DNA of 38,248 bases from Candidatus Zhuqueibacterota bacterium (GTDB taxonomy: Bacteria; Zhuqueibacterota; Zhuqueibacteria; Thermofontimicrobiales; Sulfurfontimicrobiaceae), in NCBI GenBank assembly GCA_016927835.1, contig JAFGMA010000026.1, positions 1-38,248 on the forward strand, in the 5' to 3' direction. Both the position numbers and the translations under genes were made by a program. The notes below the pieces were generated by a model that was given only the letters and a program-made list of their open reading frames with translations, did not search any database and was not told where the DNA came from. Position 1 is the first letter of the stretch. The number at the start of each line of letters is the position of its first letter. Below, in pieces: positions 5,378 through 31,400 of the stretch.

Positions 5378-8300
5378 TTATTTAACCTTTATCATTTTTC
5401 GCACGCTATGAAATGTGGCTGCATTAATTTCATAAAAATAAACGCCGGTGGGCACTGAAACGGACCTGTCATCGGTTCCATCCCAGGTGAGTTGATATTT
5501 TCCGCCGGATTGTAGTTTATCGGCAAGCGTTTTCACCAATTCGCCCTTGATGTTATAAATTCGGATCCGCACTTGCGCCGGTTCGCGATTCGCCAATTCA
5601 TACTCGATGATCGTTTCCGGATTGAATGGATTGGGATAATTCTGATGCAGCGCGAAATCAGCCGGAATCTCGATATCCGGTTTCCCCACGGTGAAAACAG
5701 CGCTGGCAGAACGTGCCTGATCCGCATTGATGCGATAACTTTCCAGCGTAAGGTCACCCACATCGCCCATCTGTCCGGCAATATCGAAAACCAGTTCGAG
5801 ATACGTGCCCGGTTCTGTGATGGGTTGCACGCCATAACAGCCCAATCGCAAGTTGCCCGGTTGTTGAAAATTCACGGCAGTCTGGAAATGAGTGCTCAGA
5901 GCGGTGGTTCTCAACTCGACAAAATTCAGGATCGAAGGCTGGTAACTGAATGTAATATCACAAGCATAAATGGTTTCATTCGATCCCGCGCGGATGGGGA
6001 TGATCAGTTTTTCGCCGGGCATACCCCAGAGGTCGGTTAAATCGGAATATGCATTATTTGTACCAATCGATTTTGCCATCGCCGAAAACGGCGTCCAGTT
6101 GCCGTCAACATCGCCCAGCAGGATTGCCGTATAATCCTGGGCAATTTGCTCGGCAAACAGGGCGGAATAGGATCGCGATTCCGGTTCAAACAGCCAGTTA
6201 CCGACTTTCGACTCCGGATTCGGCGCCAATCCCACGGCATGCATGGCGATCATCGATGCGTCGTACATCAGGATGACACCACTTTGATCGACATCGGCGG
6301 CAATCCGTTGATGTTCGGGAGGATCGGGGATGAGCGCCACCGCAATTTGAGCCGTGAGTGAGGCATCGTACATCAAAATCGAGGATGCAGAAATGTCATC
6401 GGTTTTCGATGGCGTAATCGTATAGCTTGAATTGCCCTGGAGATTGGTGAATTGATAATAACCCGCAGCATCGGTCTGCTTCACCACGCTCGCGTCACCG
6501 CTCAATTGCATGTCAGCATTTTGGATGGCAGTGCTGTTGAAATAATAGGTGACATTGCCGGAAATCGAATGCTGCATCGGGCAATAGCCGATACCATCTA
6601 ACCCATTCTGATAATGCTGCTGGATTTCGACAGGCAGTAGCGCGCGTTCATAAACAGCGATTTCATCCAACGCTCCGTTATAATAATAGCCTGCGTGCAA
6701 ATGACCGATTTCGAGCGCGGCATTGGGCGAGGAGAAATTCCCGGTATAATCATGAATCATGCTATTTTCTTCAATGCCATCCACATAAATCAGGTTTTTA
6801 TCCTGGTCTTCATCCCGAACAGCCACAATGTGATGCCACACGCCATCGGTCAGCACCGTGGTACCTGCAATATAGTCGCCATTGCGATTCTCGTCCTTCA
6901 ACTGGAACAGCGCTACTCCTTGCGGTGAACCGGAACACCAGACGCCAATCCACCAGTGGAGGTTTGAGCCGCCGCCATCCCTGCCGATAATCACTTCATT
7001 TGTACTTCCGGTGCAGCCCGTTTCTTTTTTCATCCAGAATTCGATGCTGAAGCTGGCGGCTTTATCCCAGTTGAGCGAAGGGTGGGGGGGAACGTTTATT
7101 TCATTCCCGGTTCCACCGAATTGCTGTGCATTATTCACGATGCCGGCGATCGATGTCGGCGGTTTGGAAGTGCTGGCATCGAGCGTGCCGACAAAATCTT
7201 CATACGGCGGTCCGGCGGTTTCTTCGAGCATCCAGTAATGGGTTATCCCTTCGGGACACGGGAGCGGTTCGCCCACGCTGATTGTGAAATTCTGCGTGTC
7301 TGAGCCCAGGGAATTGCTGGCTTCAACCGTCACATCGACATCTCCCCCGGTTGAAGGCGTCCATTCAATCAGCCCGGTTCCGGCGTTAATCGTCATCCCG
7401 GCGGGATATGTGAGCAACGCATACGTCGGCGCAGGGAATCCGATAGCGGAGACGTCGTAGGTGTAAAGGTCACCAGCGAATCCATCTTCCACCGGCGATG
7501 AAACGATCTGCGGCGCGATTTTTTCGCAATAGCCCTTGCCCATGCCCCCCGCATAATAATGGGTCATAATTTCCTGATCGGATAACGCCCGGTCATAGAG
7601 GGCAATTTCATCCAAAATACCATGATAGCGATAATGCCCGCCAAGATTCAGGTAACCGATATTCAGCGATACATTCGCGCTGAAATCCTGGCTATAATCA
7701 TATAATAATGAATCTATTTTCACACCGTCGACATAAATCCGGTTTTTATCGAGATTGCCATCCCGGACAGCGACGACAAGATGCCAGGCACCATCGTTGA
7801 GTGCGCTTCCGCCACCGATGGCATCACCAGCACCCGATTTATCCCGCAGTTGGAATAAAACGGTGCCGTCGTCTTTGCACCCGATCCACCAGTGCAGATT
7901 GGTTGTGGCATCATCCCTGCCGATGATGACCCGGTTTCCCTGGGTACTTTCGCTGGTTTTCATCCAGTATTCAACGGAAAAGCTCTGGTTGCTGCCCCAA
8001 TCATACGTGCCATCGTCAGCGACATTCACTTCATCGGCTGCGCCATCGAAATGCTGCGCGCCGCTGACGATGCCCGCTACCGGAGACGGACAATTGGTGC
8101 AGATCGCATCATTCGATCCGTAAAAATCTTCAAACGGCGATCCTGTATCATCCAGTTTCCAGTAATGGGACATTGCCGATGGGCAGGCGGGTTCGACAAC
8201 GTGAATCGTAAACGCCTGGGTGTCGCTCCCCTGAGAATTGCTGGCTTCGATGGTTATATCGATATCGCCGGCAATCGCTGGTACCCATTCGATAAGCCCG

Positions 8301-13187: not shown

Positions 13188-13767
13188 AGGAAATTCAGAG
13201 CACTGTTGTGCATGATATCGGATTCTATTTGGTGGTTTCGACGCGCTCGGAGCCATCAAAATAGCGAGAAACAATCCCAATAAAGCTTACTGATTCATCC
13301 CGTTTTGTCCGCTGAGGCTGTTCAATGAACGAAGGGAATATGAAAAATGTTCCTGGCACCAGCGTTCCAAAGCCGCCCGACCATATCGGGAACGTACACG
13401 CGCATTTTAACCGTTGTCTGAAATTGGTAAAAATATGCTTGTATTTTTCTGCGAATAGTTTTATCTTAACCGGTACAACGAATTCATCATTCAGGAGGCG
13501 GGATAAATTAACCCGGACGTTTTGCTCAAAAAATAATTTTGATAAATGATCCTGTTGATTTAATCAGATTGAACCTTTCAAAGGTTTACGGAAACACAAT
13601 ATGTTGGTCGCAACACGATTTACATCTCAATATTTAGTGTTACGCCTTGAGCATAACCTTTGATAGGTTAACACATCAACGGATTTATAAATAACCACTT
13701 AAGAAATTTGAATGGGTAACTTATTTTTTCCCACCTCCTTAAAGATTACTTTGGAGCCGGTTTGTCA
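13188..13767. other. Intergenic region between divergent genes, possible decayed frame
   Basis: A minus-strand frame without a start codon runs open from about 13560 to a TAG at 13225. It contains GTLVPGTFFIFPSF, which faintly recalls the C-terminal part of 2OG-Fe(II) oxygenases, but the expected metal-ligand His is absent. The region also has two AACCTTT...AGGTT palindromes. It must hold the divergent promoters of the permease and radical SAM genes. Confidence 0.35.
13572..13669. repeat. Two related short palindromes before the radical SAM gene
   Basis: AACCTTTCAAAGGTT at 13572-13586 is a perfect 7-1-7 palindrome. AACCTTTGATAGGTT at 13655-13669 differs at two positions and pairs AACCT with AGGTT. 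They lie about 68 bp apart, 100-200 bp upstream of the radical SAM start. They could be operator sites or copies of a small intergenic repeat; the sequence alone does not decide. Confidence 0.4.
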
Positions 13768-15489
13768 ATGATATTTTCGCGCCGGAATGCGGACCTGATT
13801 TTGCTTCATGCACCAAGTATTTATGATTTTAGAAAAGTGGCGAATTTACTCGGACCTATCAGCGATGTCATTCCGTCTACCCCGGTATTCGAGATGTATC
13901 CCGTCGGATTTTCCTCACTTGCGGAATATTTGGGTGCACACAATGTGTCAGTTCGGATTATCAATCTTGCCTACCGAATGTTAAGCAATCCCGGTTTTGA
14001 TGTGGAAAAGACCATTCGCAAGTTGCGCCCGAAGGCATTCGGGATTGATTTGCACTGGTTGCCCCATGCGCATGGCAGCGTTGAAATTGCAAAAATTTGT
14101 AAAAAATATCACCCGACCGTCCCGGTCATATTTGGCGGATATTCGGCAACGTATTTTCACCGCGAATTGCTGGATTATCATGAGATTGATTTTGTGATTC
14201 GGGGTGATTCCACCGAAGAGAGTTTGCATCAACTCATGCGGCAAGTTGGCGACGGAGGACAAGATTTTGAGCAAATTCCGGGATTGAGCTGGCGCCATCC
14301 GGAGCGAGGGATTGTTGAAAATCCAATGCCTGATCCGCCCGAGTCGCTAAATCAATATATGAATAACTATGTAAATTTATTCAAAATGGCGATCAGATTT
14401 CGGGACATCAAAAGCCTGACAGCGATTCACGATTGGTGGCGCTATCCAATCACGGCAGTTCTGACCTGCCGCGGTTGTACTGAAAATTGTGCGATCTGCG
14501 GCGGCTCGAAATACGCGTTGAAGCATTATGGCAACCGCCGTCAGCCGTCTTATCGCGATCCCGCTTTGATTGTGCAAGATATTTTGAATATCGGGCGATT
14601 CACCCGAGCACCCATTTTCGTCATTGGCGATCTGAACCAGCCAGGCGAATGGTACGCCAACCAGATTTTAAGCGGATTGAAAAAGCGTCCGGTCAAAAAT
14701 CAAATTGTCTTCGAATTATTCAATCCTTCGAAAGAGGACTATTTCAAAGACCTCGGCGACGCGGGCATCAACTTTAATTTTGAAATGTCACCTGAATCGC
14801 ATGCTTATGAGGTTCGAAAGGCAGCAGGCAAATTTTATAAAAATGAAGATATGGAAAATAATATCAAATGGGCGCTGGAGAACGGCTGCCAGAAATTCGA
14901 TATTTTTTTCATGATTGGGCTGCCTGAACAAACATCTGATTCGGTGCTCGAGACGGTTGAGTATTGTGAGTATTTACTGGGGAAGTTCGGCAAACGAGTA
15001 GTGCCATTTATTTCGCCGTTGGCACCATTTCTCGATCCCGGCAGCCTGGCTTATGAAAATCCGGATGCTTACGGTTATCGAATTCTGTTCCACAAATTTG
15101 AAGATTATCGCCGCGCCTTGCTAAAGCCCAGTTGGAAATACATGCTCAGCTTTGAAACGCGCTGGCTGGATCGAGAAGCCATCCTGCAATTGACTTATGA
15201 GGCGGGCAAGCGATTGAGTCGAATCAAACATAAATTCGGTTTAATAGATGATGCTGCGCTGGCAACGATTTTGAATAAGATTGACATCGCCCTTAAAAAA
15301 CACCAGCAGATTGCCCAATCTTATGAAGGAAATGAAGCTGCATTTGAGCGAGAACTTGAATTTCAATTGCAGACCGATATGCGCATCGATAGCATGGCAA
15401 CTATCTGTGGCAAAGAGGAAATTAAATGGCCATCGGCAGCCCAGAATTTTAAATTTTTAAATATTGCCAGGGCGATTTTGTTCGATTGA
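13768..15489 (+). CDS. B12-binding domain radical SAM protein
   Basis: This is a 573-aa cytoplasmic enzyme. The N-terminal part (about 1-170) has the fold pattern of a cobalamin-binding Rossmann domain (VPVIFGGYSATYF, then DFVIRGDSTEESL). The radical SAM domain follows, with CRGCTENCAICGG; the CX3CX2C cysteines C237, C241 and C244 would bind the 4Fe-4S cluster. Later segments VFELFNPS, FEMSPESH and FDIFFMIGLPEQT fit the radical SAM barrel strands. The C-terminal about 130 residues are helical. The overall layout resembles long B12/radical SAM proteins such as the Ta0216 group, but the reaction is unknown. GGAG at 13753-13756 could serve either TTG 13762 or the chosen ATG 13768. The gene is followed after 16 bp by the prenyltransferase, so the two probably form one operon. 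Confidence 0.85.
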   Translation: MIFSRRNADLILLHAPSIYDFRKVANLLGPISDVIPSTPVFEMYPVGFSSLAEYLGAHNVSVRIINLAYRMLSNPGFDVEKTIRKLRPKAFGIDLHWLPHAHGSVEIAKICKKYHPTVPVIFGGYSATYFHRELLDYHEIDFVIRGDSTEESLHQLMRQVGDGGQDFEQIPGLSWRHPERGIVENPMPDPPESLNQYMNNYVNLFKMAIRFRDIKSLTAIHDWWRYPITAVLTCRGCTENCAICGGSKYALKHYGNRRQPSYRDPALIVQDILNIGRFTRAPIFVIGDLNQPGEWYANQILSGLKKRPVKNQIVFELFNPSKEDYFKDLGDAGINFNFEMSPESHAYEVRKAAGKFYKNEDMENNIKWALENGCQKFDIFFMIGLPEQTSDSVLETVEYCEYLLGKFGKRVVPFISPLAPFLDPGSLAYENPDAYGYRILFHKFEDYRRALLKPSWKYMLSFETRWLDREAILQLTYEAGKRLSRIKHKFGLIDDAALATILNKIDIALKKHQQIAQSYEGNEAAFERELEFQLQTDMRIDSMATICGKEEIKWPSAAQNFKFLNIARAILFD

Positions 15490-15505
15490 GAAGGAGGAAA
15501 GATTT

Positions 15506-16426
15506 ATGCGTCGTAAGATTTTGCTGCTGCTAAAAGAACTGCGGGCACCCTTTTTCACAGCGGTGATTGTTCCGACGATTTTGGGCTTAGCCATCGCCAT
15601 CAATCATGGTCTTGAAATCAATTGGGTGCACTTCATCCTGACATTGTTCGGGGTGATATTCCTGCATGCGGGAACCAATATTGCCAACGACTATTTCGAT
15701 CACAAGAGCGGCAATGACGAAGCGAATAATGAATATGCGCGTCCGTTCACCGGTGGCAGCCGGCTCATCCAGAATAACGAATTGAAACCGCGGGAGGTGC
15801 TGTCAGAGTCGCTGTTTTTCTATGTGCTGGGAGCAGCCATCGGATTATATTTCATTTTCACCGTGGGAATCGGTATTTTAATTCTAGGATTCGCAGGTGT
15901 TTTTATCGGCTATTTTTATACCGCGCCACCGTTCAGGCTGGTTTATCACGGTCTAGGAGAACTGGCTGTGGGAGTGAGCTGCGGCATCCTGGTTACATTC
16001 GGCGCGTACTACGTGCAGGCGGGGCATTTTTCATGGGAACCGGTTACGGCGGGGATCCCCATTGGATTTCTCATCGCGGCGGTGCTCTGGATTAATGAAT
16101 TTCAGGATTATCACGCCGATAAAAGCGTTGGCAAAAAACACTGGGTCGTACGAATGGGCAGGCAAAAAGCTGAGAAAATTTATCGCGTCATCATGTTTGC
16201 CGCATATCTTGTTATCGTGGTTGCCAGCGTTGCCGGATGGATTTCGATTTTTGCGCTGATTGGATTAGTCACACTTCCGATTACGGTTAAAGCCATTAAA
16301 ATCGCCTCAAGAGAATATGATAATCCGCGTCAGCTCGTTGGTGCTAACGCAGCCACGATTTCGACACATTTTCTGACGGGGCTTTTGCTTTCGCTGGGTT
16401 ATATGCTGGAGCATTTTCTCGTTTAG
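15506..16426 (+). CDS. UbiA-family prenyltransferase, MenA-like
   Basis: This 306-aa polytopic membrane protein has both aspartate-rich motifs of UbiA-type prenyltransferases. The first is NDYFDHKSGNDE (NDxxDxxxD) and the second is NEFQDYHADKSVGKK (DxxxDxxxGK type). These bind the polyprenyl diphosphate through magnesium. Length and opening (LRAPFFTAVIVPTILGLAIA) fit 1,4-dihydroxy-2-naphthoate polyprenyltransferase (MenA) of menaquinone synthesis, but other UbiA acceptors are possible and no other menaquinone gene is in view. The start at 15506 is set by a perfect AGGAGG at 15492-15497; the in-frame upstream start at 15464 would overlap the radical SAM gene. The short spacing suggests that the upstream radical SAM enzyme works on the same or a related lipid or quinone. 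Confidence 0.85.
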   Translation: MRRKILLLLKELRAPFFTAVIVPTILGLAIAINHGLEINWVHFILTLFGVIFLHAGTNIANDYFDHKSGNDEANNEYARPFTGGSRLIQNNELKPREVLSESLFFYVLGAAIGLYFIFTVGIGILILGFAGVFIGYFYTAPPFRLVYHGLGELAVGVSCGILVTFGAYYVQAGHFSWEPVTAGIPIGFLIAAVLWINEFQDYHADKSVGKKHWVVRMGRQKAEKIYRVIMFAAYLVIVVASVAGWISIFALIGLVTLPITVKAIKIASREYDNPRQLVGANAATISTHFLTGLLLSLGYMLEHFLV

Positions 16427-17274: not shown

Positions 17275-19398
17275 GTGTCCAATGAGGCAAACTCTGAAAA
17301 AAATCTAAGCGCAAGCGAAATCTCTCAAGATTCCATAGAATTGGTAGAGCGAATCAATCGGCTTAATGATATTGAAAAGGAAGTTGAGGAAAGAATTGAG
17401 AGCATCATCATCAAAAAAGAGCGATTCCGGGATTGGACAAAGTCGATTGCGGATAATGCAAAAATTCAGGAATTATTTTCACACTTTGATAATGACCTGG
17501 CAAAGGTATTTTTAAAGCTAAAGCACCTCAAGCGGTTACGAGAAATTCTCTCCAATTACTCCGGTCAAGCCGCACACCATAAAGAACAGCATCGTGCGAT
17601 TGCTGCTGAAATCCTTCAAGCCCTGACACATATTAATGAAAAGGCGAACCAAATCCAAAATCTTGGTGAACTTTTTTCAACAGATAAATCAGGCGATGAA
17701 GGAATTACTACAGAATCCGGTGAGAGTGAAAAATTGGATGTCGTCGTCGATGACTCTCCTGAGTCGGCATTTCGACTTGAAAAGCGCAAAGAGGCTGCAA
17801 GAAAATTCGCAGCCTATCAGACGACGACTAAAAACGTTCTTAATCAATTTATTTCTGATAAATTGAAATCGAATGACGCCGGACACAAAAAATCGTCTGA
17901 GAAAATTAGCGGGGAAACCTTTAACATATTCGGAAGAAAAGCAACATCCAGCCCTGGTGAAGATGACGCACTTTGCCCAACTGAAACCGGGGATGACTTA
18001 TCTGAAAATCAGCCAGCGATACCAGCATCCGGAGCATCTTTCGCTGGAGAAGCCGACGATGACAGCAGCCCGACTGCTTCGGGAACGGAAACCAGCTTTC
18101 GCAAAAACATTTCGCCTAAATTACCTGAGAGTCTGTTCCGCAAACAGCAATCCGACGCATCGCCTCAAGCCTCGGAGACCGAAGAATCCGAGCAAAGCCA
18201 GGATGAGGAGAATAAAAGCGAAGGCACACTGCAAAAATTTAAGAACCGTTTTATTCAAAAGAAAAAGAAATCAAAGGAGGCTGACAAAACGATGCAACAG
18301 GAAGTCAACGGAAGCAAATCAGGTGAACAATCACACAGAAGAAAAAGAAGCAAGAAATCTCAAAAAGAGAAACAGCGCTTCAAACCAAGTGCAACCGATA
18401 CTGATGTCCTGTACCTGGGCATTGATTTAGGAACATCACAAACGACAGTGGCTGCAAGCAATGCAGTATGTGAAACAGTCATGAGTGTTGTCGGACTGCC
18501 AAAAGACATCATTTCAGAAAAATTACTGAAGAAAGATAAATTGTTTGGATCAGAGGCTTTGCGGAACAAGCTTTCGCTTAATCTCTATCGACCGCTGGAA
18601 AAGGGAGTTATCAAAGATACGGACGCAGATCTGGAAGCAGCCAGGGAATTATTGAAATATGTGATTAACCTGGCAAAGCCGGAAAAGTATAAAAAAATAT
18701 TTGCGGTAATCGGTGCTCCTGCGCGTTCCAGCTTTGAGAATCAACAGGCACTGATTGATGCAGCACGAGAAGCAGTGGATGCGGTGATGCTGATCAGCGA
18801 GCCGTTCGCAGTAGCCTACGGAGAAGGCAATATATACAACTCGCTCGTCGTCGATATCGGTGCCGGCACAACCAATATTTGCTGCTTGAAGGGAACGATG
18901 CCCTCGGATAGCGATCAGGTAACGCTGCTTAAAGCCGGTGATTACATAGACAACCAATTGATCGAATCCATATCTACTAAAATTCAGGGAGCACAGCTCA
19001 CGAAAGATATTGCCAAAAAATGGAAAGAGAAATTTTCATTTACAATAGAATCTCAGCACCGCGCTGTCGTCGAAATGACAATTGAGGGCAAACCGGCAAA
19101 AGTCGATATAAGTCGAAATATTAAGGAAAGCTGTGAATCGATCATCCCCGAAATTTGTAGAGGGATGAGAAAAGCAATTTCTGCCTTTGATCCTGAATTC
19201 CAAAATGAATTGAAGCAAAACATCATTTTGGCAGGTGGCGGGAGCTTGATCCGAAACATTGATAAATCGTTGATCCAGCAATTGCGTTCGATGGGTGAGA
19301 TTCAGATTTCGCGCATCCCGAATCCTATCACAGCAGCCGCAAAAGGTGCACTCGCGCTTGCGAAAGACTTGACAGATGACTACTGGCGGGCATTTTAA
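17275..19398 (+). CDS. MamK-like bacterial actin with long coiled-coil N-terminal extension
   Basis: This is a 707-aa protein. The C-terminal domain (about 376-707) matches the MamK class of filament-forming actin ATPases: phosphate-1 motif GIDLGTSQTTV, SVVGLPKD, LISEPFAVAYG (catalytic-type E509), phosphate-2 motif VVDIGAGTTN (D527), adenosine motif ILAGGGSLIRNI, and the ending DDYWRAF that resembles YWRAL of MamK. E509 and D527 are 18 residues apart, as E143 and D161 are in magnetotactic MamK. The residue after GAGTT is Asn534, where the neighbouring paralogue and MamK have Asp. The N-terminal extension (1-375) contains predicted coiled coil (about 15-130), an acidic Ser/Pro-rich linker, and a strongly basic Lys/Arg block just before the actin fold. 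A GTG start is supported by AGGAGG seven nt upstream. MamK family members are usually about 350 aa, so this is a fusion or extended form. Confidence 0.85.
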   Translation: MSNEANSEKNLSASEISQDSIELVERINRLNDIEKEVEERIESIIIKKERFRDWTKSIADNAKIQELFSHFDNDLAKVFLKLKHLKRLREILSNYSGQAAHHKEQHRAIAAEILQALTHINEKANQIQNLGELFSTDKSGDEGITTESGESEKLDVVVDDSPESAFRLEKRKEAARKFAAYQTTTKNVLNQFISDKLKSNDAGHKKSSEKISGETFNIFGRKATSSPGEDDALCPTETGDDLSENQPAIPASGASFAGEADDDSSPTASGTETSFRKNISPKLPESLFRKQQSDASPQASETEESEQSQDEENKSEGTLQKFKNRFIQKKKKSKEADKTMQQEVNGSKSGEQSHRRKRSKKSQKEKQRFKPSATDTDVLYLGIDLGTSQTTVAASNAVCETVMSVVGLPKDIISEKLLKKDKLFGSEALRNKLSLNLYRPLEKGVIKDTDADLEAARELLKYVINLAKPEKYKKIFAVIGAPARSSFENQQALIDAAREAVDAVMLISEPFAVAYGEGNIYNSLVVDIGAGTTNICCLKGTMPSDSDQVTLLKAGDYIDNQLIESISTKIQGAQLTKDIAKKWKEKFSFTIESQHRAVVEMTIEGKPAKVDISRNIKESCESIIPEICRGMRKAISAFDPEFQNELKQNIILAGGGSLIRNIDKSLIQQLRSMGEIQISRIPNPITAAAKGALALAKDLTDDYWRAF
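18273..18294 (+). promoter_or_regulatory. Internal Shine-Dalgarno and in-frame ATG in the extended actin gene
   Basis: AAAGGAGG at 18273-18280 is followed after 11 nt by ATG at 18292, which is in frame as codon 340. Initiation here would give a 368-aa protein starting MQQEVNG, close to the normal length of a stand-alone MamK-type actin. The spacing is slightly long. Lys-Glu codons in the linker could make such a box by chance. Confidence 0.4.
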
Positions 19399-19520
19399 AG
19401 AAAGCGCTTTTTAATTCCAATTTATGAATTTAATACAAAGTAAGTGTTAAATTTACTATTTATAAAATAATTACTTAAGTGGTACAAATGCAAAAAAATG
19501 CTTAAGGAGGACTTCAAAAT

Positions 19521-20558
19521 ATGGCAGAGGAAATCGAAAACACGACTAAAAGCGCAGACAATGATGTTTTGTATCTCGGAATCGATCTTGGTACATCAGA
19601 AACTGCTATATCTGCTAGTAATAGCATCAGTGCCAGACGGTTGAGCGTTGTCGGGTGGCCCAAAGATTTAATCTCCCAGAAGCTCTTGAAAAAGGATGTG
19701 CTATTTGGTCAAGAGGCATTGCGGCATAAACTGGCATTAAACATTTATCGCCCGCTAGAAAAAGGTGTTATCAGAGATACGGATGGCGACCTGGAAGCTG
19801 CACGCGAATTGGTCAAACACGTGATTGGCTTAGCCAAACCCAAAAAATATAAAAAAGTCTATGCGGTTATTGGTGCGCCTGCCCGTTCGACATTCGCCAA
19901 TCAACAAGCGATAATTGACGCTGCAAGGGAAGTTGTCGATGCCGTTATGATCGTAAGTGAACCGTTTTCGGTAGCCTACGGAGAGGGCAAAATTTCAAAT
20001 TCGCTGGTGATCGATGTCGGAGCGGGCACGACTGATATCTGCTGTCTGAAAGGCACGATGCCGGAAGACGAAGACCAGGTAACGATCCTGAAGGCGGGTG
20101 ATTACATTGATAACGCGCTGATGGATTCTTTGAAAACCAAAATCCAGGGCGCGCAGTTGACAAAAGATATGGCGAAAAAATGGAAAGAAGAATATTCATT
20201 TGTTCTCGAACCTGAGAAACCCGCTGTTATCGAACTCACTATCGAAGGCAAACCCGTTCGCGTCGATATCACAAAAAATATAAAAGAAAGTTGTGAATCG
20301 ATCGTTCCCGAAATTGTTGCCTGTGTGAAAACGATCATCGCATCATTCGATCCCGAATTCCAGCCGGAACTCAAACAGAATATCATCCTGGCTGGAGGCG
20401 GCAGTTCTATACGCAACATTGATAAGATGTTCACCAGAGAACTCCGATCCCTGGGTGCCGTTCAGGTACACCGCGTGGAAGAGCCATTCATGGCAGGATC
20501 CAAAGGTGCGCTTAGTCTGGCAAGAGATTTGACAGACGATTATTGGAGAGCGCTGTAG
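19521..20558 (+). CDS. MamK-like bacterial actin, short form
   Basis: This 345-aa actin-like ATPase has the normal MamK length. The motifs are GIDLGTSETAI (phosphate 1), SVVGWPKDLI, VSEPFSVAYG with E147, VIDVGAGTTDICCLKG with D165 and D172 (phosphate 2), ILAGGGSSIRNI (adenosine) and the C-terminal DDYWRAL. The catalytic-type E147 and D165 keep the 18-residue spacing of magnetosome MamK. It aligns without visible gaps to the C-terminal about 330 residues of the preceding protein, with roughly two thirds of positions identical by eye, so the pair is a tandem duplication. AAGGAGG lies 10 nt before the ATG. It is followed by a strong hairpin. MamK proteins polymerise into cytoplasmic filaments; here no magnetosome genes are present, so the cargo or structure organised is unknown. 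Confidence 0.88.
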   Translation: MAEEIENTTKSADNDVLYLGIDLGTSETAISASNSISARRLSVVGWPKDLISQKLLKKDVLFGQEALRHKLALNIYRPLEKGVIRDTDGDLEAARELVKHVIGLAKPKKYKKVYAVIGAPARSTFANQQAIIDAAREVVDAVMIVSEPFSVAYGEGKISNSLVIDVGAGTTDICCLKGTMPEDEDQVTILKAGDYIDNALMDSLKTKIQGAQLTKDMAKKWKEEYSFVLEPEKPAVIELTIEGKPVRVDITKNIKESCESIVPEIVACVKTIIASFDPEFQPELKQNIILAGGGSSIRNIDKMFTRELRSLGAVQVHRVEEPFMAGSKGALSLARDLTDDYWRAL

Positions 20559-21153
20559 ACCAGAACCGGATGCACCTGAGCCCCTTGCTCAGGTGCTTAA
20601 TATTCCAATGCATTCGCCTGGAGATTCGAATTCCATGATTGTCTAACGTCAGTTATCAATACTATCGAACCGACGGTAATCATCAAAAGCTGCTCAGGCA
20701 AATTTTATATCGCTTTAAGGAACAAAATAATAGTAATCTAATCGCAATACCGCTGAGCCGGAATCTCATGGCTCATTCAGGAAGCTGGATTAAATACCTC
20801 AATAAACTATAATAGCTGTCTCGAAGAAAATTGAGGCTTCGCGAAGTTAAAAGCAGTTCACTTTATCCCGGATCCCCACAGGGATTTCGGTGTAAATGGT
20901 AGGCGAAATATGTAGTTCAGGCAGATCTCGTCACTTTAAGCGTATCAAGCCAAAGCGTAGCAGTTTTTTAAATCATTTGTGGTGAAGGACATGCGTTTAT
21001 TCCGATTTATCAGCCAGGCACAAACCATGTGCAAATAAGAAATGCAGCCGGCAACGCCAGGGATTGCATCAATCAAAGTATCGCGGATTTATCGGAAAAG
21101 CAATATAATTAACAGGCAAATCTATAAAATGTCTGGATGGAGAGAATACACTG
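20559..21153. other. Intergenic region inside the actin/roadblock block
   Basis: This 595-bp gap begins with the hairpin at 20572-20596 and then shows no credible gene. GGAGAG precedes the next start at 21154. The region presumably carries the promoter of the roadblock/GTPase operon. I looked for a cyclic-di-GMP riboswitch and a tRNA and could support neither. Confidence 0.5.
20572..20600 (+). terminator. Hairpin terminator after the second actin gene
   Basis: GCACCTGAGC (20572-20581) and GCTCAGGTGC (20587-20596) form a perfect 10-bp stem with a 5-nt loop, 14 bp after the stop codon. Only a short T-rich tail (TTAATATT) follows, so termination may be partial. Confidence 0.65.
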
Positions 21154-21999
21154 ATGATTGTAACAGGAAACCTTAAAGATTTTAATCTAACTGAGATCAT
21201 AAAAATGAGTTGCATGGACATCCGAACGTCTCAAATAACGATTAATACAAGCTCAGGTGAAGGGATAATCTTTTTTTCAGAAGGCAATCCTTATCATGCT
21301 CAATTAGGTGATAAAATTGGAGAAGACGCCATTCATTGCTTGCTAGATGAAACAGAAAAAAATGGTGGATTTTTTCGTGTAGAACCGGATGTCACTTTGC
21401 CTCAACGTACTATTTCTCACAGTTGGGAAGATGTACTTGAAAATAGAGGAATGAAGCAATCCGAAGAGCCTCCAGAGCCAAGTTCCTCAAATAGTAAGGA
21501 GGAGAGTCCTATGCTCATAGGCAGAAAAGAAGCCATAACAAAAGTGCTGAAAAGTTTCCAGGAAAAGAATAATTTCAAAGCCCCCAAACGACCGCTGCAT
21601 CAACCTGACACGGATGAAGACCATCTGAAGCCGCTGGGCAGGGGTGAATCGCTTGTTAAAATATTAAATAATTTAAAAGCACGCGAAAAAGAAATTGAAG
21701 GCGCAGCCATCGTCAGCACCGAAGGATTTATCATTGCTTCGGCGCTGCCGGAGGAAATGGAAGAAGAGCACGTAGCCGCGATATCGGCTGTAGTCCTTTC
21801 GATGGGTGAACGCATTACTGATGAACTGGTGCGCGGAACGTTGGAACAGGTTTACGTCCGTGCGGACAACGGATTTGTATTTTTGACCCACGCGGGTCAG
21901 GACGCCTTGCTGATAATTATCACAAATCCTAATATCAAGCTGGGGATGATTTTTCTCGATGCGAAAAAAACGATATCCGAGCTAGTAGATTATCTTTAA
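21154..21999 (+). CDS. DUF4388 (PATAN)-roadblock/LC7 fusion protein
   Basis: In this 281-aa protein, residues 1-100 fit a DUF4388/PATAN domain (GNLKDFNLTEIIKM, then GIIFFSEGNPYHAQLG and GEDAIHCLL). That domain is frequent in bacterial polarity and motility regulators. Residues about 165-281 form a roadblock/LC7 domain (IEGAAIVSTEGFIIAS, then MGERITDEL, ALLIIITNPNIKLGMIFLDA). Such domains dimerise and bind or regulate small GTPases, as MglB does for MglA. A Ser/Glu-rich linker joins the two. It is the first gene of a five-gene run that includes the GTPase at 23003. A strong internal Shine-Dalgarno and in-frame ATG (codon 120) sit in the linker. The start is supported by GGAGAG about 9 nt upstream of the ATG. 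Confidence 0.82.
   Translation: MIVTGNLKDFNLTEIIKMSCMDIRTSQITINTSSGEGIIFFSEGNPYHAQLGDKIGEDAIHCLLDETEKNGGFFRVEPDVTLPQRTISHSWEDVLENRGMKQSEEPPEPSSSNSKEESPMLIGRKEAITKVLKSFQEKNNFKAPKRPLHQPDTDEDHLKPLGRGESLVKILNNLKAREKEIEGAAIVSTEGFIIASALPEEMEEEHVAAISAVVLSMGERITDELVRGTLEQVYVRADNGFVFLTHAGQDALLIIITNPNIKLGMIFLDAKKTISELVDYL
21496..21513 (+). promoter_or_regulatory. Internal Shine-Dalgarno and in-frame ATG before the roadblock domain
   Basis: AAGGAGG at 21496-21502 stands 8 nt before ATG 21511, which is codon 120 of the surrounding gene. Starting here would make a 162-aa protein (MLIGRKEAI...) containing the roadblock domain without DUF4388, comparable in size to the stand-alone roadblock proteins downstream. 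The box and spacing are as good as those of the annotated starts in this operon. Confidence 0.5.
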
Positions 22000-22024
22000 A
22001 AGCTTGCCCCATAGTTCCGCTGAA

Positions 22025-22049
22025 ATGGTGGTGCGCCTGGCACCATCAT
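22025..22049 (+). other. Intercistronic hairpin
   Basis: ATGGTGGTGC (22025-22034) pairs with GCACCATCAT (22040-22049) through 10 pairs, one of them G-U, around a 5-nt loop. There is no T-run after it, so it may act as an RNA stabiliser or weak attenuator between the first two roadblock genes rather than a terminator. Stem and loop sizes equal those of the hairpin at 20572-20596. Confidence 0.45.
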
Positions 22050-22109
22050 GATACAAAAAGCGAACTCATTCAACAACACATTTTTTCAGTTAACTTGGAG
22101 GTGTTAAAA

Positions 22110-22472
22110 ATGGGAACAGGTGCAAAGGATCCCCGAAGAATTTTAAATTTATTGCTGCAGCTTCCTGGTGTATCATCTGTGGCAATCGTAGGGCGAGATG
22201 GATTCGTGATCGATAGTGTTTCTGGAGATGAAGTCGATCTTGATGCCCTGGGAGCAGTCATTTCAACTGGCTTCAGTTCTAAAGAGGTGATGGGAACTGA
22301 ATTGAATCTCGGCTTTCTAACGCATGCCATCATGGAATACGATGTCGGGAAAATTTTGACAGCATCGTGTGGTGAACATATTTTGGCAGTCGTCACCGAA
22401 CCCGGTGCGATTATCGGGCATATACGTCATAACATCAAAAAACACATTATCGAACTCGGGAAGTTGATTTAG
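22110..22472 (+). CDS. Roadblock/LC7 domain protein
   Basis: This 120-aa protein is almost entirely one roadblock/LC7 domain: an N-terminal helix (PRRILNLLLQL), first strand pair PGVSSVAIVGRDGFVIDS, a central helix (ALGAVISTGFSSKEVMG), and a later strand EHILAVVTEPGAIIGHIRH with a final helix. MglB and related roadblock proteins of this size form dimers that act on a Ras-like GTPase. I set the start at 22110 because GGAGG at 22097-22101 lies 8 nt before this ATG; the upstream TTG at 22095 overlaps the box itself. It lies in the same operon as the GTPase gene but is more divergent than the two roadblock proteins that flank the GTPase. Confidence 0.82.
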   Translation: MGTGAKDPRRILNLLLQLPGVSSVAIVGRDGFVIDSVSGDEVDLDALGAVISTGFSSKEVMGTELNLGFLTHAIMEYDVGKILTASCGEHILAVVTEPGAIIGHIRHNIKKHIIELGKLI

Positions 22473-22542
22473 CTTTTAAATCTGTTAATGCTTAGGTGTA
22501 TCTATCTTTGAGTTATACAACCCGCAATGGAGGTTTTTTTTA

Positions 22543-22992
22543 ATGCCCAGAGAAATTAATGATGTGCTAGATGAGGTTTTACAGAACGCACCCGGTGTTA
22601 TAGGAGCTATACTAATCGATGTTGACGGTATCCCAATTTGCATTAGCGGACGTTTCGAGCTTCCCGCCGAAGAATTGGGCGCTTTGCTTGCGGCTTGTTT
22701 CACGTCGTACGCGCAAGTAGGTGCTGATTTGGGGCAAGAGCTCTCTACTGTGATGACTGAATATAAAAATTTAAAATTATATCAGGTGGGAATGCCTCGA
22801 GGCGGGCTAATCATCATTGCCGATAAAAACGCATATCTGGGGATGATCCGATTGGAAGCCAAACGTGCCATTAGAGAATTAACCGACTTAATGAGTGTCT
22901 CGGAAAAATCACGCGAAGAATTAATGACAAGACATAAATTCAGGGCGCCAAGCGAAGATGAAGTAAAGGACCTTATTTCAAAATTCTTGTAA
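22543..22992 (+). CDS. Roadblock/LC7 domain protein, flanks the GTPase upstream
   Basis: In this 149-aa protein, residues 1-115 form a roadblock/LC7 domain (NAPGVIGAILIDVDGIPICI, ELGALLAACFTSYAQVGADL, GGLIIIADKNAYLGMIRLEA). A charged helical tail of about 35 residues follows. It strongly resembles the protein encoded at 23622 (shared pattern PGxIGxxLxDxDGxPIxIxGR and ELGAxxAAC), so the two are paralogues placed on either side of the small GTPase. The stop is only 10 bp before the GTPase start, indicating co-transcription and probably a direct partnership. GGAGG precedes the ATG. By analogy with MglB it could be a GTPase-activating or localising partner; no activity can be proven from the sequence. 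Confidence 0.83.
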   Translation: MPREINDVLDEVLQNAPGVIGAILIDVDGIPICISGRFELPAEELGALLAACFTSYAQVGADLGQELSTVMTEYKNLKLYQVGMPRGGLIIIADKNAYLGMIRLEAKRAIRELTDLMSVSEKSREELMTRHKFRAPSEDEVKDLISKFL

Positions 22993-23002
22993 GGAGAGAA
23001 GA

Positions 23003-23596
23003 ATGAGACTGATTAATGGTCAACTCTATATAAAAATTCTTTTTTTTGGAACGGCGTTGGCTGGCAAAACCACTACATTGAATTGGGTATATCAGAACGT
23101 GATTCCGAATTCCATGAAAAAAACATCGGAAATCAAAAGCATCAATACCTCGTTCGGACAAACCATGCTTTTCGATTTTGTGCCTATCAAGATATCTGAT
23201 AATATTAATTTCAGATTTTTCACCGCAACCGGTCAGGATTATTATGCCGGTACCCGAAAATTGCTCTTTCAGGAGGTTGATGGCGTATTTTATGTCGTCG
23301 ATTCTCAAAAGGCTGAATTGGAACATAATAAAGAATTCGTCGATGAATTCTACCAGCATGTCAATACATATTTTAAAAGCTTGAAAGATATAAGCGTCGT
23401 TGTGCTTTTTAATAAACAGGATTTAGAGGATATTTATAAAGCATCCTTTCTAAAAAAAGAATTAGCACTCGATAAATTTCCTTCGTATGAGACGAGTGCT
23501 GTGACAGGGAAAAATTTGAAGCTGGCTTTCTCCAGAATGATTAAAATTTGCCTGAGGCGGGTCTCTTCGAATCAACTCTACAAAACCATTATTTGA
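23003..23596 (+). CDS. MglA-like small Ras-type GTPase
   Basis: This 197-aa cytoplasmic GTPase has the P-loop G16TALAGKTT24 (GxxxxGKT), an MglA-like LFDFVP segment after switch I, the G3 region TATGQ (T74-Q78), RKLLFQEVDGVFYVVDSQ, base-specificity motif N137KQD140, and a G5-type ETSA motif. MglA proteins likewise have Thr instead of the usual Asp at the start of G3 (TVPGQ) and the RKLI..VDGVVFVADSQ block, so membership of the MglA branch is well supported. MglA is the polarity switch of Myxococcus and is controlled by the roadblock protein MglB. Here the gene is sandwiched between two related roadblock genes and lies downstream of two actin genes. AGGAGAG is close before the ATG. Which cell structure it polarises is unknown. 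Confidence 0.86.
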   Translation: MRLINGQLYIKILFFGTALAGKTTTLNWVYQNVIPNSMKKTSEIKSINTSFGQTMLFDFVPIKISDNINFRFFTATGQDYYAGTRKLLFQEVDGVFYVVDSQKAELEHNKEFVDEFYQHVNTYFKSLKDISVVVLFNKQDLEDIYKASFLKKELALDKFPSYETSAVTGKNLKLAFSRMIKICLRRVSSNQLYKTII

Positions 23597-23621
23597 TGCA
23601 TTAACTTGAGTAGGGTACCCT

Positions 23622-24065
23622 ATGCAGCTAGACGCAAAAGCAACAATTGACCAGACTTTAAACAATATCCCCGGGATCATCGGTGTTATGCTGATGGATC
23701 TTGACGGCAAGCCGATTTATATAAACGGTCGAATCGATATGGCGGTTTCCGAGCTGGGTGCCGTCTCTGCTGCTTGTTATGCCGGCGCAAAAGAAATTGG
23801 CGAGTATCTTGCCCAATCTTCCGATTCGATAACCATCCTGGCAGAATACGATTCATTCAAAATATATCACATCGGATTATCGGGCAATGCCCAACTGATT
23901 ATTCTCACAAAGATTAAAGAATCACGGATGGGAATGCTCCAATCGGAAATTGCTACCATCGAAAAAGAATTCTCTGCATCGATACAGTCGCTTCAAAACA
24001 AGCCCTCCCAGGAATCTGATGAATCCTCACCCCAAAAAATTTCCAACGAAGTTCAAAATGACTGA
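23622..24065 (+). CDS. Roadblock/LC7 domain protein, flanks the GTPase downstream
   Basis: In this 147-aa protein, residues 1-115 are a roadblock/LC7 domain (NIPGIIGVMLMDLDGKPIYI, SELGAVSAACYAGAKEIG, AQLIILTKIKESRMGML). It closely follows the protein at 22543 in the first half, then ends with a Ser/Gln/Glu-rich, probably disordered tail of about 30 residues. It begins 25 bp after the GTPase and closes the operon. The ribosome binding site is weak (TAGGG), suggesting lower expression than its paralogue or coupling to the GTPase. The two flanking paralogues may form a heterodimer that binds the GTPase asymmetrically; this is inference from gene order. Confidence 0.82.
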   Translation: MQLDAKATIDQTLNNIPGIIGVMLMDLDGKPIYINGRIDMAVSELGAVSAACYAGAKEIGEYLAQSSDSITILAEYDSFKIYHIGLSGNAQLIILTKIKESRMGMLQSEIATIEKEFSASIQSLQNKPSQESDESSPQKISNEVQND

Positions 24066-27133: not shown

Positions 27134-28464
27134 TGTGCCTTCGATTTTTTCCCGATGCGCATTTGGCGTCGCAGCGAAGCCGGCATTATTTTCCAAAATG
27201 GAGCCCGTCCAATTCCATTGTATCCGAAGGCTTCCAGCAGATTCATCGAATAATGCTTTCTGCGCGTCACTGAGATAACGCGAGTTGCTGTTAGCTGCCT
27301 CGCTTGATTCAACTTTCCTTTTTATGCTCTCAGCTAGTCCACATTTTGAATCCCTTCTTACCTTTCACAAATTTCTGAGCCATTACTAAAAATACGAGAA
27401 TTTCCTTGCAATCGATACTTAAATGGCTTATTTTATGCCTGGCGCGAATCGACCATCAGATCACGATCCAGTTCGAGCAGCAAAACTTTTTGCGTGCCCA
27501 ATTCCGGAGATGGAACACAACCACCTGCACTGATTTGCTTTTTAGCTTCTTGTCTTTTTTTTGCACAGATCTACCATAAAAAAATACCAATCCGCCTTTA
27601 TAGCGTTTAATGCAATATTTTCGGAAATAAATTATGCCGGTTGCGGATGTAAATAATTTATGATTCGTCTATTATTAGAAGCCATCCGTAAAACAGGCTA
27701 TCCACCAGTAATTTGTTTGACACAAGTACCAAAATTTTAAACGAAAATCCACTTTGAAAAGGTGTGGGTCTTCGCAGGATTGACATCAGGTGGTTTTTCG
27801 ATCAGGTAATTTCAGATGCATGGAATGCAGGCTGAAAGCAGACATTCGATGAATCAACGCATTCAAAAACTATCGCCAATGAATGCCACCAAAATTTGCA
27901 GCCCGGATTCAGCGGACGCATGTCAATGGCATAAGATACCAATGCGGGCTTGCTGTCAGCCGATGTCAAAACGGCTGATCGGGAAAACAACATATCCACA
28001 TGCGCGTTGGCAAAAGTCAGAGATGGAGATCAAGATGGAGCGCCTGAATCAATCGAGTAGTGGTTGCGAATGGAAAGCTCAGGTTTACTTTGCAAACATA
28101 TCAAGATTCAATCGCTCATTTTTTCCGGGAGCCACTTACACCAAACTGGGATTAAAGTCAATTCACCGAAAAAAAATAAGCGCAAAACCTGCTATTCGCC
28201 CGCCATAGGAAATTTATTTTCGTGCAGACACCTCAATATTAATTATGTCCCCGGGCAATTGCACTATTTTTAACGATCACACAACAGAATTATCAAAAGA
28301 TCCTAAAACTCGCACCATGCACTGACATCACGCCACAATAACCGGATCATTTACTCGTGAAATGTAAAGCATCATATTACCCGGAAAATTGGCTCGTATA
28401 TTACGGTTCCGGCACCAAAAAAATCCAATGATTGTTAACCCTTATCAAATCGTGAGGTGTGCTA
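27134..28464. other. 1.3-kb intergenic region without a recognisable gene
   Basis: Open frames here (for example 27816-28208 plus and 27802-27999 minus) lack ribosome binding sites, have shadow-like composition and match no motif I know. No tRNA, palindromic repeat or terminator stands out. It may contain decayed coding sequence or an unrecognised RNA. GTGAGGTG at 28452-28459 serves the next gene. Confidence 0.4.
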
Positions 28465-31400
28465 ATGCGATTCTGCAAAGAGGCGATACGTACAAAACCC
28501 AAATCGATGTTTGAACGGGATATCGCCGGATTTTTGTATACTTTATTGATAAGCATCTTTTTGCTTGTCGGACAAAGCGCAATTGCGGCTGAACAGGATA
28601 AACTGCTAAGCGTGCCACAACCAATCCCGTTGAATGCAGCGGCAAAATGCAATGAAAAGCCTGAAAAAGGCATACTTCTTTCCGCACCGAAAAAAATTTC
28701 CGCTCATAAAACAAAACCACTCAATATCATTTTCAGCGAAGGATTCGAATCATCCTCAAGCGGGTGGAGTATCATTGGTGGAGTGTGGGAAATCGGAACT
28801 CCCACATCAGGTCCTGGTAGCGCGTTCAACAGCAATCGTTGCGCTGCAACCGATTTGAATAATTCATATCCAGCCGGATGTTGGGCAGGACTAATCAGCC
28901 CGTCAATAAACCTGCCAGTGATTACGGACGACCGCATTGAAATCGAGCTCCATTTTTGGACCTGGTATGCAATTGAATCCGGCTACGATTATGGCGTCAT
29001 AAAAATCACCGATGATGATGGTCAAACGTGGAATGATTTGAGTTCGCAATTCGATGGCACAACCGGTGAATGGGAACTTGCAGCGTATGATCTGACCATG
29101 TTTGCCGGATCAACCATCAGGTTGGCGTTCTATCTCTATTCTGACGGCAGCAATGAGTACGACGGTTGGTTTATTGATGATATTCAGATTGATACAGAGG
29201 AAATCATACAATCGGGATCATTAGAGATTGCAGTCAGCGGTAACGGACAATTCACAATGGGTACAACCGATTATGGTCCGATTCTGCTCTATGGTCACCC
29301 ATCTCCCTGGTCATCGGCGACAACTGTTCGAATCGATGGCGAGGATTATTGGAATTATCGCTACCGAACATGGGGAACAGTGGTGTCGGATCCCACCAAC
29401 GATGGTCTGTCCAATTCGACTACCTGGAATGTTGGTCCGGTGAGGTTGAAACAAACACTAACAATCGTATCGGGTTCAACAACCGGAGAGAAAGATACGG
29501 GTGAAATTAAATATACCGTGACCAATGTGGATAATACCGCACACTCTGTCGGGCTTCGGATCATGCTCGATACCATGCTGGCGGATAATGATGGTGCCCC
29601 GTTTCGAATTCCCGGCACTGGTGCGGTTACCACCGAATACGAATATTTGAAAACCGCCATGCCGCTGTACTGGCAGGCGTTTGACGATTTAACCGAGCCA
29701 ACGATACAATCACAGGGAACCCTTGCCGGCGGCAATGCCACTAAACCGGATAGATTCATCACGGTTGGTTGGAACTATATCACCAACGACCCATGGGAGT
29801 ACAATACCGTCTGGGGACGCGATTTTTACACCAGCGGCTATGGGTATGATAGCGCGATTGCAATTTATTGGTACGAGGCTACCCTTGAATCCGGTGAATC
29901 ACGCGATTTTGTTACATATTACGGATTGGGAGGTATCGATGTCGATATTCAGCCGCCACTGGTTGCCGGATTAAGCGCACCCCGTTCCGTTATCGTCAGG
30001 AAATGTCTGGCGAATGAACCATTTACGTTAATGGTTTATTTGAGCAATACCTCACCCGGCGTTACTCGAACCGCACAGGGCGTTTCAACCGTTTTGCACC
30101 TGCCGTCAGGTTTAAGTCTCCTTTCAGGAGAAGCCACACATTATTTACCAGACCTGTCGCTGGGTGCTGATACGCAAACGGATTATCAAATTCAGGCAGA
30201 AGGTACCGTGGGCGGTCGCATCAACTATACGCTGGACGTGAATTCTACCAGTATCTCCTCAAAAACCGTCTCCAAAGATATTTACGTTTTCGGAATCGAA
30301 ACAACACCAGCGGACGAGGCTGAAGTGGGTAGCATGCCAACGATTAGTGCGACTTTCAACCTTGCAATGGATGTCTCCACGATTAATGAATCGAGTTTTT
30401 TGCTCTCCGATGGTGCATCTTATATGCCCGGTACAGTAAGCTATGACGCATCGACAAGAGTCGCCACGTTCATACCCGATAGTCCACTGGAAGCCGAAAA
30501 ATCATATACCGCAATCATGACGACGGATGTGACATCCATGGACAGGGAGCCATTGTCCTACCGGCTTGAATGGCAATTTTCAGTTGTCGAAGGCGATAAC
30601 TGGGGTGACTATTTGACTCAGAAACAAGGCATTATCGATTTTTTCCTGGACGATGCCAGTTTCTATGTTCCGGAAGAAGCCGCAGCACAAGACTATTTGA
30701 CTAAGGTCCAATCAAGATATTCAACCGGAACCGCCAGCGAAATCGAATTGGAGTCGATTGCCAGGCTATGCCTTTCCGAACAACTGGCAAAAGACGCATA
30801 TATGGATGCAGATGAAATAGCTGATATCTCAACTGATGGTCTGTCTGGAAGCCTTAATATCCTGTTTTTTGTCATTTCCAAAACTGGCGGCATTATTAAG
30901 CTGGTGAAAAAGATCCCCTTCATCGGCAATGGTATGGCACATCTCCTGACCAAATTTCAGCAGAAGCTCATCAAGGTGGCAGCCCGCGGGACCAAGGAAT
31001 TTATCACCCGGGTACTGCAGGTAGATCCGAATTATTACAACTGGGGCTGGCGCTATGGAAATGTAGTGATTCCAACTCAGGCAAAATCTCTTCTCGAAGA
31101 CAAAGTTGAAGATTTGTACGAGGAGAGTGCCTCATGGGGATTGGAAACTACATTCGAGCAAATACACGAGTGGATAAAGCAGAATACATTCCTCCCGTTA
31201 TATGAATGGAATTCAAATCAATATGTTGAGAATGGAATAAGTTATGCCAAAACATCACCCCATATTTTCAGCGAAGGGCAATTTAAGCCTGCCAAACAGA
31301 ATGTCGAAGCAACTGCAAGTGAAATGTCCGCTTCGAATACTAATGCCATCAACTATGGCAGAGGTGTGCTAAACGCTGCAGACCTTGTTGATAGCATCGT

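What the first reader, a model, noticed from the sequence alone, without database searches (positions are those of the whole stretch)
17275..24065. Actin-GTPase-roadblock module: two MamK-like actins with four roadblock proteins and an MglA-like GTPase
Two tandem MamK-class actin ATPases are followed on the same strand by a DUF4388-roadblock fusion, two roadblock/LC7 proteins, an MglA-branch GTPase and a further roadblock protein. MamK is known from magnetosome islands and MglA/MglB from motility and polarity. I know of no described locus that puts filament-forming MamK-type actins next to an MglA-type switch with multiple roadblock partners. No magnetosome membrane gene is present. The inference is a filament system whose position or dynamics is set by a Ras-like switch. 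The two halves are separated by 595 bp and a hairpin, so they may be separate transcripts.
Basis: partly seen in the sequence, partly recalled or inferred. Interest (0 to 1): 0.92.

Follow-up and report, generated by a model that had tools for sequence, protein, structure and literature searches.

The report
Actin pair with Ras-like switch
Two related bacteria of a little-studied group keep two actin genes, one with a long flexible arm, beside a Ras-like switch gene and four partner genes in the same order, which suggests a bacterial actin skeleton controlled by its own molecular switch.

Summary
Seven same-strand genes (17275-24065) encode a long and a short MamK-class actin, a DUF4388-roadblock fusion, two roadblock proteins, an MglA-like GTPase and a fourth roadblock protein. 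The link is narrow: actins were found in 2 of 82 genomes of the phylum, and none of 46 MamK-like loci outside it shows a roadblock or GTPase hit in its held flanks. Against a strict unit: one relative (G007) has the GTPase-roadblock operon without actins, and a third actin stands alone in both actin-bearing genomes. New here: the long actin has a predicted helical-hairpin head (about 130 residues) on a disordered arm, a plan shared with the third actin; and this GTPase clade has Gln where all 26 other relatives aligned have the MglA arginine finger. Best reading: an actin filament with side arms, positioned or gated by a dedicated MglA/roadblock switch. Physical interaction is inferred, not shown. 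New variant of a known kind; interest about 0.7.

The parts
17275..19398 (+). ActA: long MamK-class actin, 707 aa, GTG start
   Evidence: NF040964 402.1 bits against cut-off 400, at residues 379-705; 59% identical to the syntenic copy in G001 over 448 aligned residues
17275..17667 (+). ActA head: predicted helical hairpin (helices 4-55 and 62-131), shared with the other long actins
   Evidence: AlphaFold2 model, mean pLDDT of ten-residue blocks 76-90 over residues 21-90; alignment of four heads; the head profile finds four long actins at E below 1e-37 in 7 genomes, and one weak hit in G007 at E 0.005
17668..18405 (+). ActA linker: mostly disordered arm, 246 residues by the model; counted from residue 101 it is 278 here and 825 in G001
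   Evidence: pLDDT mostly below 50, with one weak helix at 163-199; composition on the disordered side of the charge-hydropathy boundary in 4 of 4 long actins
18409..19395 (+). ActA actin ATPase domain
   Evidence: residues equivalent to MamK E143 and D161 conserved
19521..20558 (+). ActB: short MamK-class actin, 345 aa
   Evidence: NF040964 425.2 bits; PDB MamK 5jyg E 9.7e-87; 77% identical to the syntenic copy in G001
20572..20596 (+). hairpin (10 bp stem) after ActB; possible terminator with a poor T run
   Evidence: 7 terminator-like sites found in the region, 7.7 expected by shuffling; no G+C-rich counterpart in G001
21154..21999 (+). R1: DUF4388-roadblock fusion
   Evidence: PF14332 42.8 bits and PF03259 59.6 bits; 53% identical to G001 copy
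22095..22472 (+). R2: roadblock/LC7 protein
   Evidence: PF03259 47.1 bits; 68% identical to G001 copy
22543..22992 (+). R3: roadblock/LC7 protein with C-terminal tail
   Evidence: PF03259 37.3 bits; 80% identical to G001 copy
23003..23596 (+). MglA-like GTPase with Gln53 in place of the arginine finger
   Evidence: PDB MglA matches; residue counts; 69% identical to G001 copy
23622..24065 (+). R4: divergent roadblock protein
   Evidence: no Pfam hit; roadblock-type model, pLDDT 75, and MglB matches; 38% identical to G001 copy

Best explanation
The seven genes form one module: a MamK-class actin cytoskeleton with its own Ras-like switch. ActB and the actin domain of ActA probably co-polymerise (inferred from about 70% identity between them, and intact ATPase residues). 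ActA subunits would place helical-hairpin heads on long disordered arms around the filament, serving as spacer, cross-linker or docking point (inferred from the model). The GTPase and the roadblock proteins would form a nucleotide-switched complex of the MglA/MglB kind that recruits, anchors or releases the filament at one cell site (inferred). Shown here: gene order and its conservation in two genomes, domain make-up, head-and-arm architecture as a prediction, conserved actin catalytic residues, loss of the arginine finger. Not shown: expression, filaments, any contact between the two halves.
For: All seven genes occur in the same order and orientation in G001, at 38-80% identity. Outside them, the window compared with 57.5 kb of the G001 contig gives weak partial hits only (28-34% identity). 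G000 and G001 are different genera of one family. In the phylum the actins occur in 2 of 82 genomes and the close GTPase clade in 3 of 82, and both actin genomes have the GTPase clade. 6 of 6 actins keep the MamK E143 and D161 equivalents. MglA-GTP is reported to act through direct interaction with MreB in Myxococcus (review PMC8144978, passages).
Against: G007 has the GTPase-roadblock operon but no MamK match at E 1e-30 (genome 82% complete). The third actin, with the same head, has no roadblock or GTPase hit in its held flanks in either genome. None of 46 MamK-like loci outside the phylum has one in its held flanks. Only two genomes show the link, and both are draft bins listed with 5-6% contamination; 0 of the 49 genomes of the phylum at least 90% complete and at most 5% contaminated have the actins. 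Gene order between these two genomes is also kept around MreB (4 genes). A 595-bp gap with a hairpin separates the halves here. Complexes could not be predicted with these tools.
Confidence: 0.47

Rival explanations
1. Two independent modules side by side: an actin pair and an MglA/roadblock polarity switch with another output, adjacent because of shared recent history in one bacterial family.
For: G007 keeps the operon without a MamK match; the third actin stands alone; gap and hairpin between the halves; 0 of 46 outside MamK-like loci show the link in held flanks; gene order between the two genomes survives at the MreB region as well.
Against: The conserved stretch has sharp edges: seven genes kept, both flanks replaced, and at the third actin nothing but the actin is shared between the same two genomes. 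So order is often lost between them, yet the two halves stayed together.
Confidence: 0.33
2. The module serves surface motility: the GTPase switch sets polarity of type IV pili or gliding machinery, with these actins as the scaffold.
For: MglA works this way with MreB in Myxococcus (PMC8144978, passages); G000 has PilT-family ATPase matches, best 318.8 bits against a cut-off of 319.1.
Against: G001 (listed 100% complete) has the whole module but no PilT-family match at E 1e-30 (3 of 7 genomes searched have none). Both genomes also keep an MreB gene and further MglA-like GTPases elsewhere.
Confidence: 0.12
3. The actins are a cell-size or organelle-positioning scaffold like the MamK-related Bbp of giant bacteria, and the GTPase operon is a general regulator.
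For: MamK-related actins without magnetosomes are reported in giant bacteria (PMC10580974, abstract and passages); the two genomes are large, 7.3-7.6 Mb.
Against: No cell-size data exist for this family in my calls; no Bbp sequence was compared here; G005, without the actins, is larger still at 7.9 Mb.
Confidence: 0.08

Closest known systems
MamK (magnetosome actin)
   Same: Both actins pass the NCBIfam MamK cut-off; ActB matches the solved MamK at E 9.7e-87; catalytic residues kept
   Different: No magnetosome gene noted among the neighbours scanned; ActA has 378 residues of head and arm; beside a GTPase-roadblock operon. The six f1 actins form one group in the tree (support 99/98)
BeeR (Verrucomicrobiota actin)
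   Same: MamK-related actin with a disordered N-terminus in non-magnetotactic bacteria (PMC11929497, first of two parts of the text)
   Different: BeeR extension is 30-50 aa; here 378-925 residues with a predicted helical head; scores 212 and 228 bits against the BeeR cut-off of 530
Bbp (actin of giant bacteria)
   Same: MamK-like actin in mostly non-magnetotactic bacteria, in a small gene cluster (PMC10580974, passages)
   Different: Reported cluster is actin, hypothetical protein and Kelch protein; no GTPase named there in the passages read; sequences not compared here
MglA/MglB polarity module with MreB in Myxococcus
   Same: Ras-like switch with roadblock partner acting on a bacterial actin (PMC8144978, passages)
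   Different: There the actin is the housekeeping MreB, encoded elsewhere (recalled); here four roadblock proteins and two MamK-class actins share a locus, and the GTPase lacks Arg53
MglA Groups 1 and 5 beside PATAN-domain proteins
   Same: MglA and MglB-type genes near PATAN proteins were reported before (PMC4316618, passages); that DUF4388 corresponds to PATAN is recalled
   Different: No actin genes in those neighbourhoods in the passages read

Membership tests
MamK family (NF040964) | score above the curated cut-off of 400 bits | tested here: met
   402.1 and 425.2 bits; the third actins score 381 (G000) and 397 (G001), just below it
MamK family (NF040964) | ATPase residues E143 and D161 | tested here: met
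   6 of 6 f1 actins; the role of these residues is recalled
MamK family (NF040964) | work on magnetosomes, mam gene context | not tested
   no mam models were run; four window neighbours scanned with Pfam are not of that kind
MamK family (NF040964) | forms filaments | not testable with these tools
   needs purified protein or imaging
BeeR | NCBIfam BeeR cut-off of 530 bits | tested here: not met
   211.9 and 228.1 bits
Bbp | place within the Bbp branch of the actin tree | not tested
   no Bbp sequence was at hand
MglA GTPase family | Thr in place of a highly conserved residue (Thr78 in MglA) | tested here: met
   Thr74 here, Thr in 29 of 29 GTPases aligned; definition from the start of the abstract of PMC3000849 as listed
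MglA GTPase family | arginine finger Arg53 | tested here: not met
   Gln in 3 of 3 of this clade, Arg in 26 of 26 others aligned; role of Arg53 from PMC6876712 passages. Group 2 MglA also lacks a conserved arginine finger (PMC4316618 passages)
MglA GTPase family | adjacent MglB-type roadblock gene | tested here: met
   R3 ends 10 bp before it and R4 starts 25 bp after it
Roadblock/LC7 | Pfam Robl_LC7 or roadblock fold | tested here: met
   R1-R3 by Pfam; R4 by model and Foldseek only

The most novel reading that the evidence does not exclude
A bacterial actin cytoskeleton with side-arm-bearing subunits and its own dedicated Ras-family switch and regulators encoded in one locus: a bacterial counterpart of the Rho/Cdc42-actin logic that arose separately by joining MamK-class actins to an MglA-type GTPase operon.
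Probability: 0.38. Interest if true: 0.88.

Novelty: new variant of a known kind. Interest (0 to 1): 0.7.

Why it matters
Control of actin by small GTPases is a hallmark of eukaryotic cells. In bacteria the example I know of is MglA acting on MreB, an actin that also serves cell-wall growth. A locus that pairs dedicated actins with a dedicated switch would let that logic be studied in isolation. The head-and-arm actin would also be an unusual subunit architecture: it suggests a filament with built-in side arms, which electron microscopy could test directly.

Tried and rejected
Single-sequence scan of genome contigs found no relative. The alignment scan gave 40 loci: 2 belong to G001 itself, 31 are MamK-like (40-49% identity), and 7 (L079-L085, 22-26% identity) were dropped as other actin-fold proteins; none of those 7 had a roadblock or GTPase hit either.

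Flanks vary: of the 31, 18 have at least 5 kb on both sides and all have it on one; of the 16, 9 and 15. Absence means absence in the held flanks only. The roadblock profile was built from 12 sequences of this clade; as a control it found the distant roadblock proteins in L044 and L045.

MreB loss was considered because the first search showed no strong MreB in G000; rejected, MreB is present but carries an insert. A weak head-domain hit in G007 (E 0.005) was not followed. Type IV pili as the necessary output: G001 shows no PilT match. A conserved terminator between the halves: not seen in G001.

The check bears that out, but also shows four genes kept in order at the MreB region; for this I lowered the best explanation from 0.50 to 0.47 and the novel case from 0.40 to 0.38, and raised the first rival from 0.30 to 0.33.

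Searches of the paper library (listings only, except for the passages cited) showed no description of a MamK-class actin beside an MglA/roadblock operon; most subscription papers are not held. Complexes could not be predicted (single chains only). A fold search of ActA was not run, because 321 of its 707 residues are below pLDDT 50. In one search a wrong P-loop pattern left 3 GTPases in the profile; mended (29 sequences: 3 of this clade and 26 from the 27 loci L016-L042; L021 gave no frame through the filter).
Full report
What is there. The window is one whole contig of a 7.58-Mb draft genome (G000; 452 contigs, listed 93% complete, 5.1% contamination). Two contigs of its relative G001 have exactly the lengths (91,008 and 76,764 bases) of two records titled Caldithrix sp. 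isolate SulCav_AS07-7_41_26, so the group is probably Calditrichota; this label is inferred. Seven genes lie on the + strand at 17275-24065: ActA (707 aa), ActB (345 aa), R1 (DUF4388-roadblock), R2 and R3 (roadblock), an MglA-like GTPase, and R4.

Domain evidence. ActA and ActB pass the NCBIfam MamK cut-off (402.1 and 425.2 bits against 400). ActB matches the solved MamK at E 9.7e-87. R1, R2 and R3 pass the Pfam roadblock cut-off and R1 also the DUF4388 cut-off. The GTPase matches MglA structures best. R4 has no Pfam hit, but its model (mean pLDDT 75) has the roadblock element order, and MglB and other roadblock chains are its top Foldseek hits.

Conservation. In G001 the same seven genes occur in the same order and orientation, at 59, 77, 53, 68, 80, 69 and 38% identity for ActA (448 aligned residues), ActB, R1, R2, R3, GTPase and R4. 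The window compared with 57.5 kb of the G001 contig gives, besides these seven and frames antisense to them, weak partial hits of 28-34% only. So the module kept its order while its surroundings did not. As background, two other regions of these genomes were compared: around the third actin nothing but the actin is shared, while around MreB four genes keep their order. Kept order alone is thus not exceptional between these genomes; the sharp edges of the module are the stronger sign.

The operon without actins. In G007, of another family of the same order and listed 82% complete, an operon R1, R2, a 365-aa protein, R3, GTPase, a 127-aa protein and an R4-like protein exists (GTPase 67%, R3 68%, R2 47%, R1 39%, R4-like 35% identity). 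No MamK profile hit is on its held 12.0 of 12.4 kb of contig or, at E 1e-30, in the genome. The 365-aa and 127-aa proteins have no Pfam family above cut-off. The GTPase-roadblock operon can therefore exist without the actins; whether the actins joined it later or G007 lost them is open.

Distribution. MamK-class actins at E 1e-50 occur in 2 of 82 genomes of the phylum, G000 and G001, both listed with more than 5% contamination; 0 of 49 at least 90% complete and at most 5% contaminated have them. Because two independently assembled bins hold the same module, contamination by a foreign contig is an unlikely source, though not excluded. The close GTPase clade occurs in 3 of 82. More distant MglA-like GTPases are nearly universal: 58 of 60 genomes (G000 included) have a match at E 1e-10, other than this clade at 27-37% identity.

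Outside the phylum, 31 MamK-like loci of one collection (marine Poseidoniales-type archaea, methane-cycling archaea, Geobacteraceae and relatives) and 16 of 395 genomes drawn from the phylum of one Geobacteraceae genome have MamK-class actins. None of these 46 distinct loci has a roadblock or GTPase hit in its held flanks (flank lengths). Of 15 genomes searched whole (15 of the 31), 5 have an MglA-like GTPase at E 1e-10, at 28-33% identity. Tandem MamK-class pairs occur in 5 of the 16 (G241, G291, G306, G336, G397), so the pair is not special; the switch operon beside it is.

The long actins. G000 and G001 each hold a third actin on another contig with the same plan as ActA: head, arm, actin domain, and with no roadblock or GTPase hit in 17.4 and 20.0 kb. 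The extensions before the actin domain measure 378, 925, 425 and 523 residues. The heads align over about 100 residues with 9 invariant positions, and a head profile finds these four proteins at E below 1e-37 in 7 genomes, plus one weak hit in G007. The AlphaFold2 model of ActA (6 sequences in the alignment, mean pLDDT 56, pTM 0.40) shows two long helices (4-55, 62-131), a weak helix (163-199), a stretch to residue 374 almost wholly below pLDDT 50, then the actin domain at mixed confidence. The arms lie on the disordered side of the charge-hydropathy boundary in 4 of 4. In the 46 outside loci the actin frames are 332-435 aa, apart from broken or truncated ones, so no such arm was seen. A maximum-likelihood tree of 39 actins puts the six family members together (support 99/98), with ActA, ActB and the third actin each pairing across the two genomes (94/72, 97/96, 92/83). 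This suggests that the duplications predate the split of the two genera. The placement against MamK and BeeR is unsure because those branches are long.

The GTPase. In an alignment of 29 GTPases, the three of this clade keep Thr54, the MglA-type Thr (position 74) and the switch-2 Gln (78), as do the other 26; but at 53 the three have Gln and the other 26 Arg. In MglA, MglB works by moving Arg53 towards the active site (PMC6876712, passages). That mechanism cannot run unchanged here. It may be a slow switch, or be activated by another partner; inferred. Two further GTPases of G000 have Arg there.

Mechanism. The best-supported reading is a filament of ActA and ActB with head-bearing arms, controlled by the GTPase with its roadblock partners. 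The arms could keep filaments apart, as proposed for the short extension of BeeR, whose removal causes bundling (PMC11929497, part 1 of 2 of the text), or carry docking heads. The switch could place or release the filament at one site, as MglA does with MreB (PMC8144978, passages). Each of these steps is inference; what is shown is gene order, its conservation, and predicted architecture. I put about 0.47 on functional control of the actins by the switch, and about 0.33 on two neighbours with separate outputs.

Against the reading: only two genomes; the halves occur apart in G007 and for the third actin; a gap and hairpin here; kept gene order also at MreB; no contact tested. The presence of the whole module in G001 without a PilT-family match at E 1e-30 speaks against a type IV pilus output as the general one.

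Known context. PATAN-type proteins near MglA and MglB genes were reported (PMC4316618, passages). MamK-related actins without magnetosomes were reported as BeeR and Bbp. I found no paper describing a MamK-class actin with an MglA/roadblock operon in the listings. I file it as a new variant of a known kind: known parts, new combination, plus an unusual actin subunit architecture.

Noticed in passing
L010:6448-7722 (-) and L095:1066-2334 (-), MreB of G000 and G001: MreB of both family members has an insert of about 78 residues in the region of subdomain IIB (subdomain name recalled); the Pfam MreB profile matches positions about 180-250 twice and the insert faintly resembles the preceding segment, so it may be an old internal duplication. 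Four other relatives aligned have none. A BLAST self-comparison did not detect the repeat.
   Followed up: partly
L057:10349-13813, L058:11027-11626: In two of two methane-cycling archaeal loci scanned (of four held), the MamK-like actin is directly followed by a protein with an Arch_fla_DE (archaellum D/E) domain, 1155 and 200 aa.
   Followed up: no
L070, L071, L072, L073, L074 (Geobacteraceae-type loci): A related protein, 796-896 aa where listed whole and in fragments elsewhere, lies just downstream of the MamK-like actin in 6 of 9 loci of that group; the one scanned has only a weak Pfam hit (Lebercilin, below cut-off).
   Followed up: no
L048-L056, L059-L063, L067, L068, L076, L078 (Poseidoniales-type loci): The MamK-like actin of these marine archaea sits in a conserved neighbourhood; a related protein (312-353 aa in the six listed) precedes it in 17 of 18 loci.
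   Followed up: no
L119, L120, L124, L125, L131: Tandem MamK-class actin pairs in 5 of 16 actin-bearing genomes of another phylum.
   Followed up: partly
L043:7767-8864 (-) and 6378-6761 (-): Two proteins without a Pfam family above cut-off lie inside the G007 roadblock-GTPase operon.
   Followed up: no
window 272-4774 (-), 5378-10912 (-) and 28459-32775 (+): Three very large proteins (1500, 1844 and 1438 aa) share a C-terminal YPNPFNP motif of secretion-sorting type (recognised from recall).
   Followed up: no
window 13762-16426: A B12-binding radical SAM protein and a UbiA prenyltransferase overlap, as longest frames, just upstream of the module.
   Followed up: no
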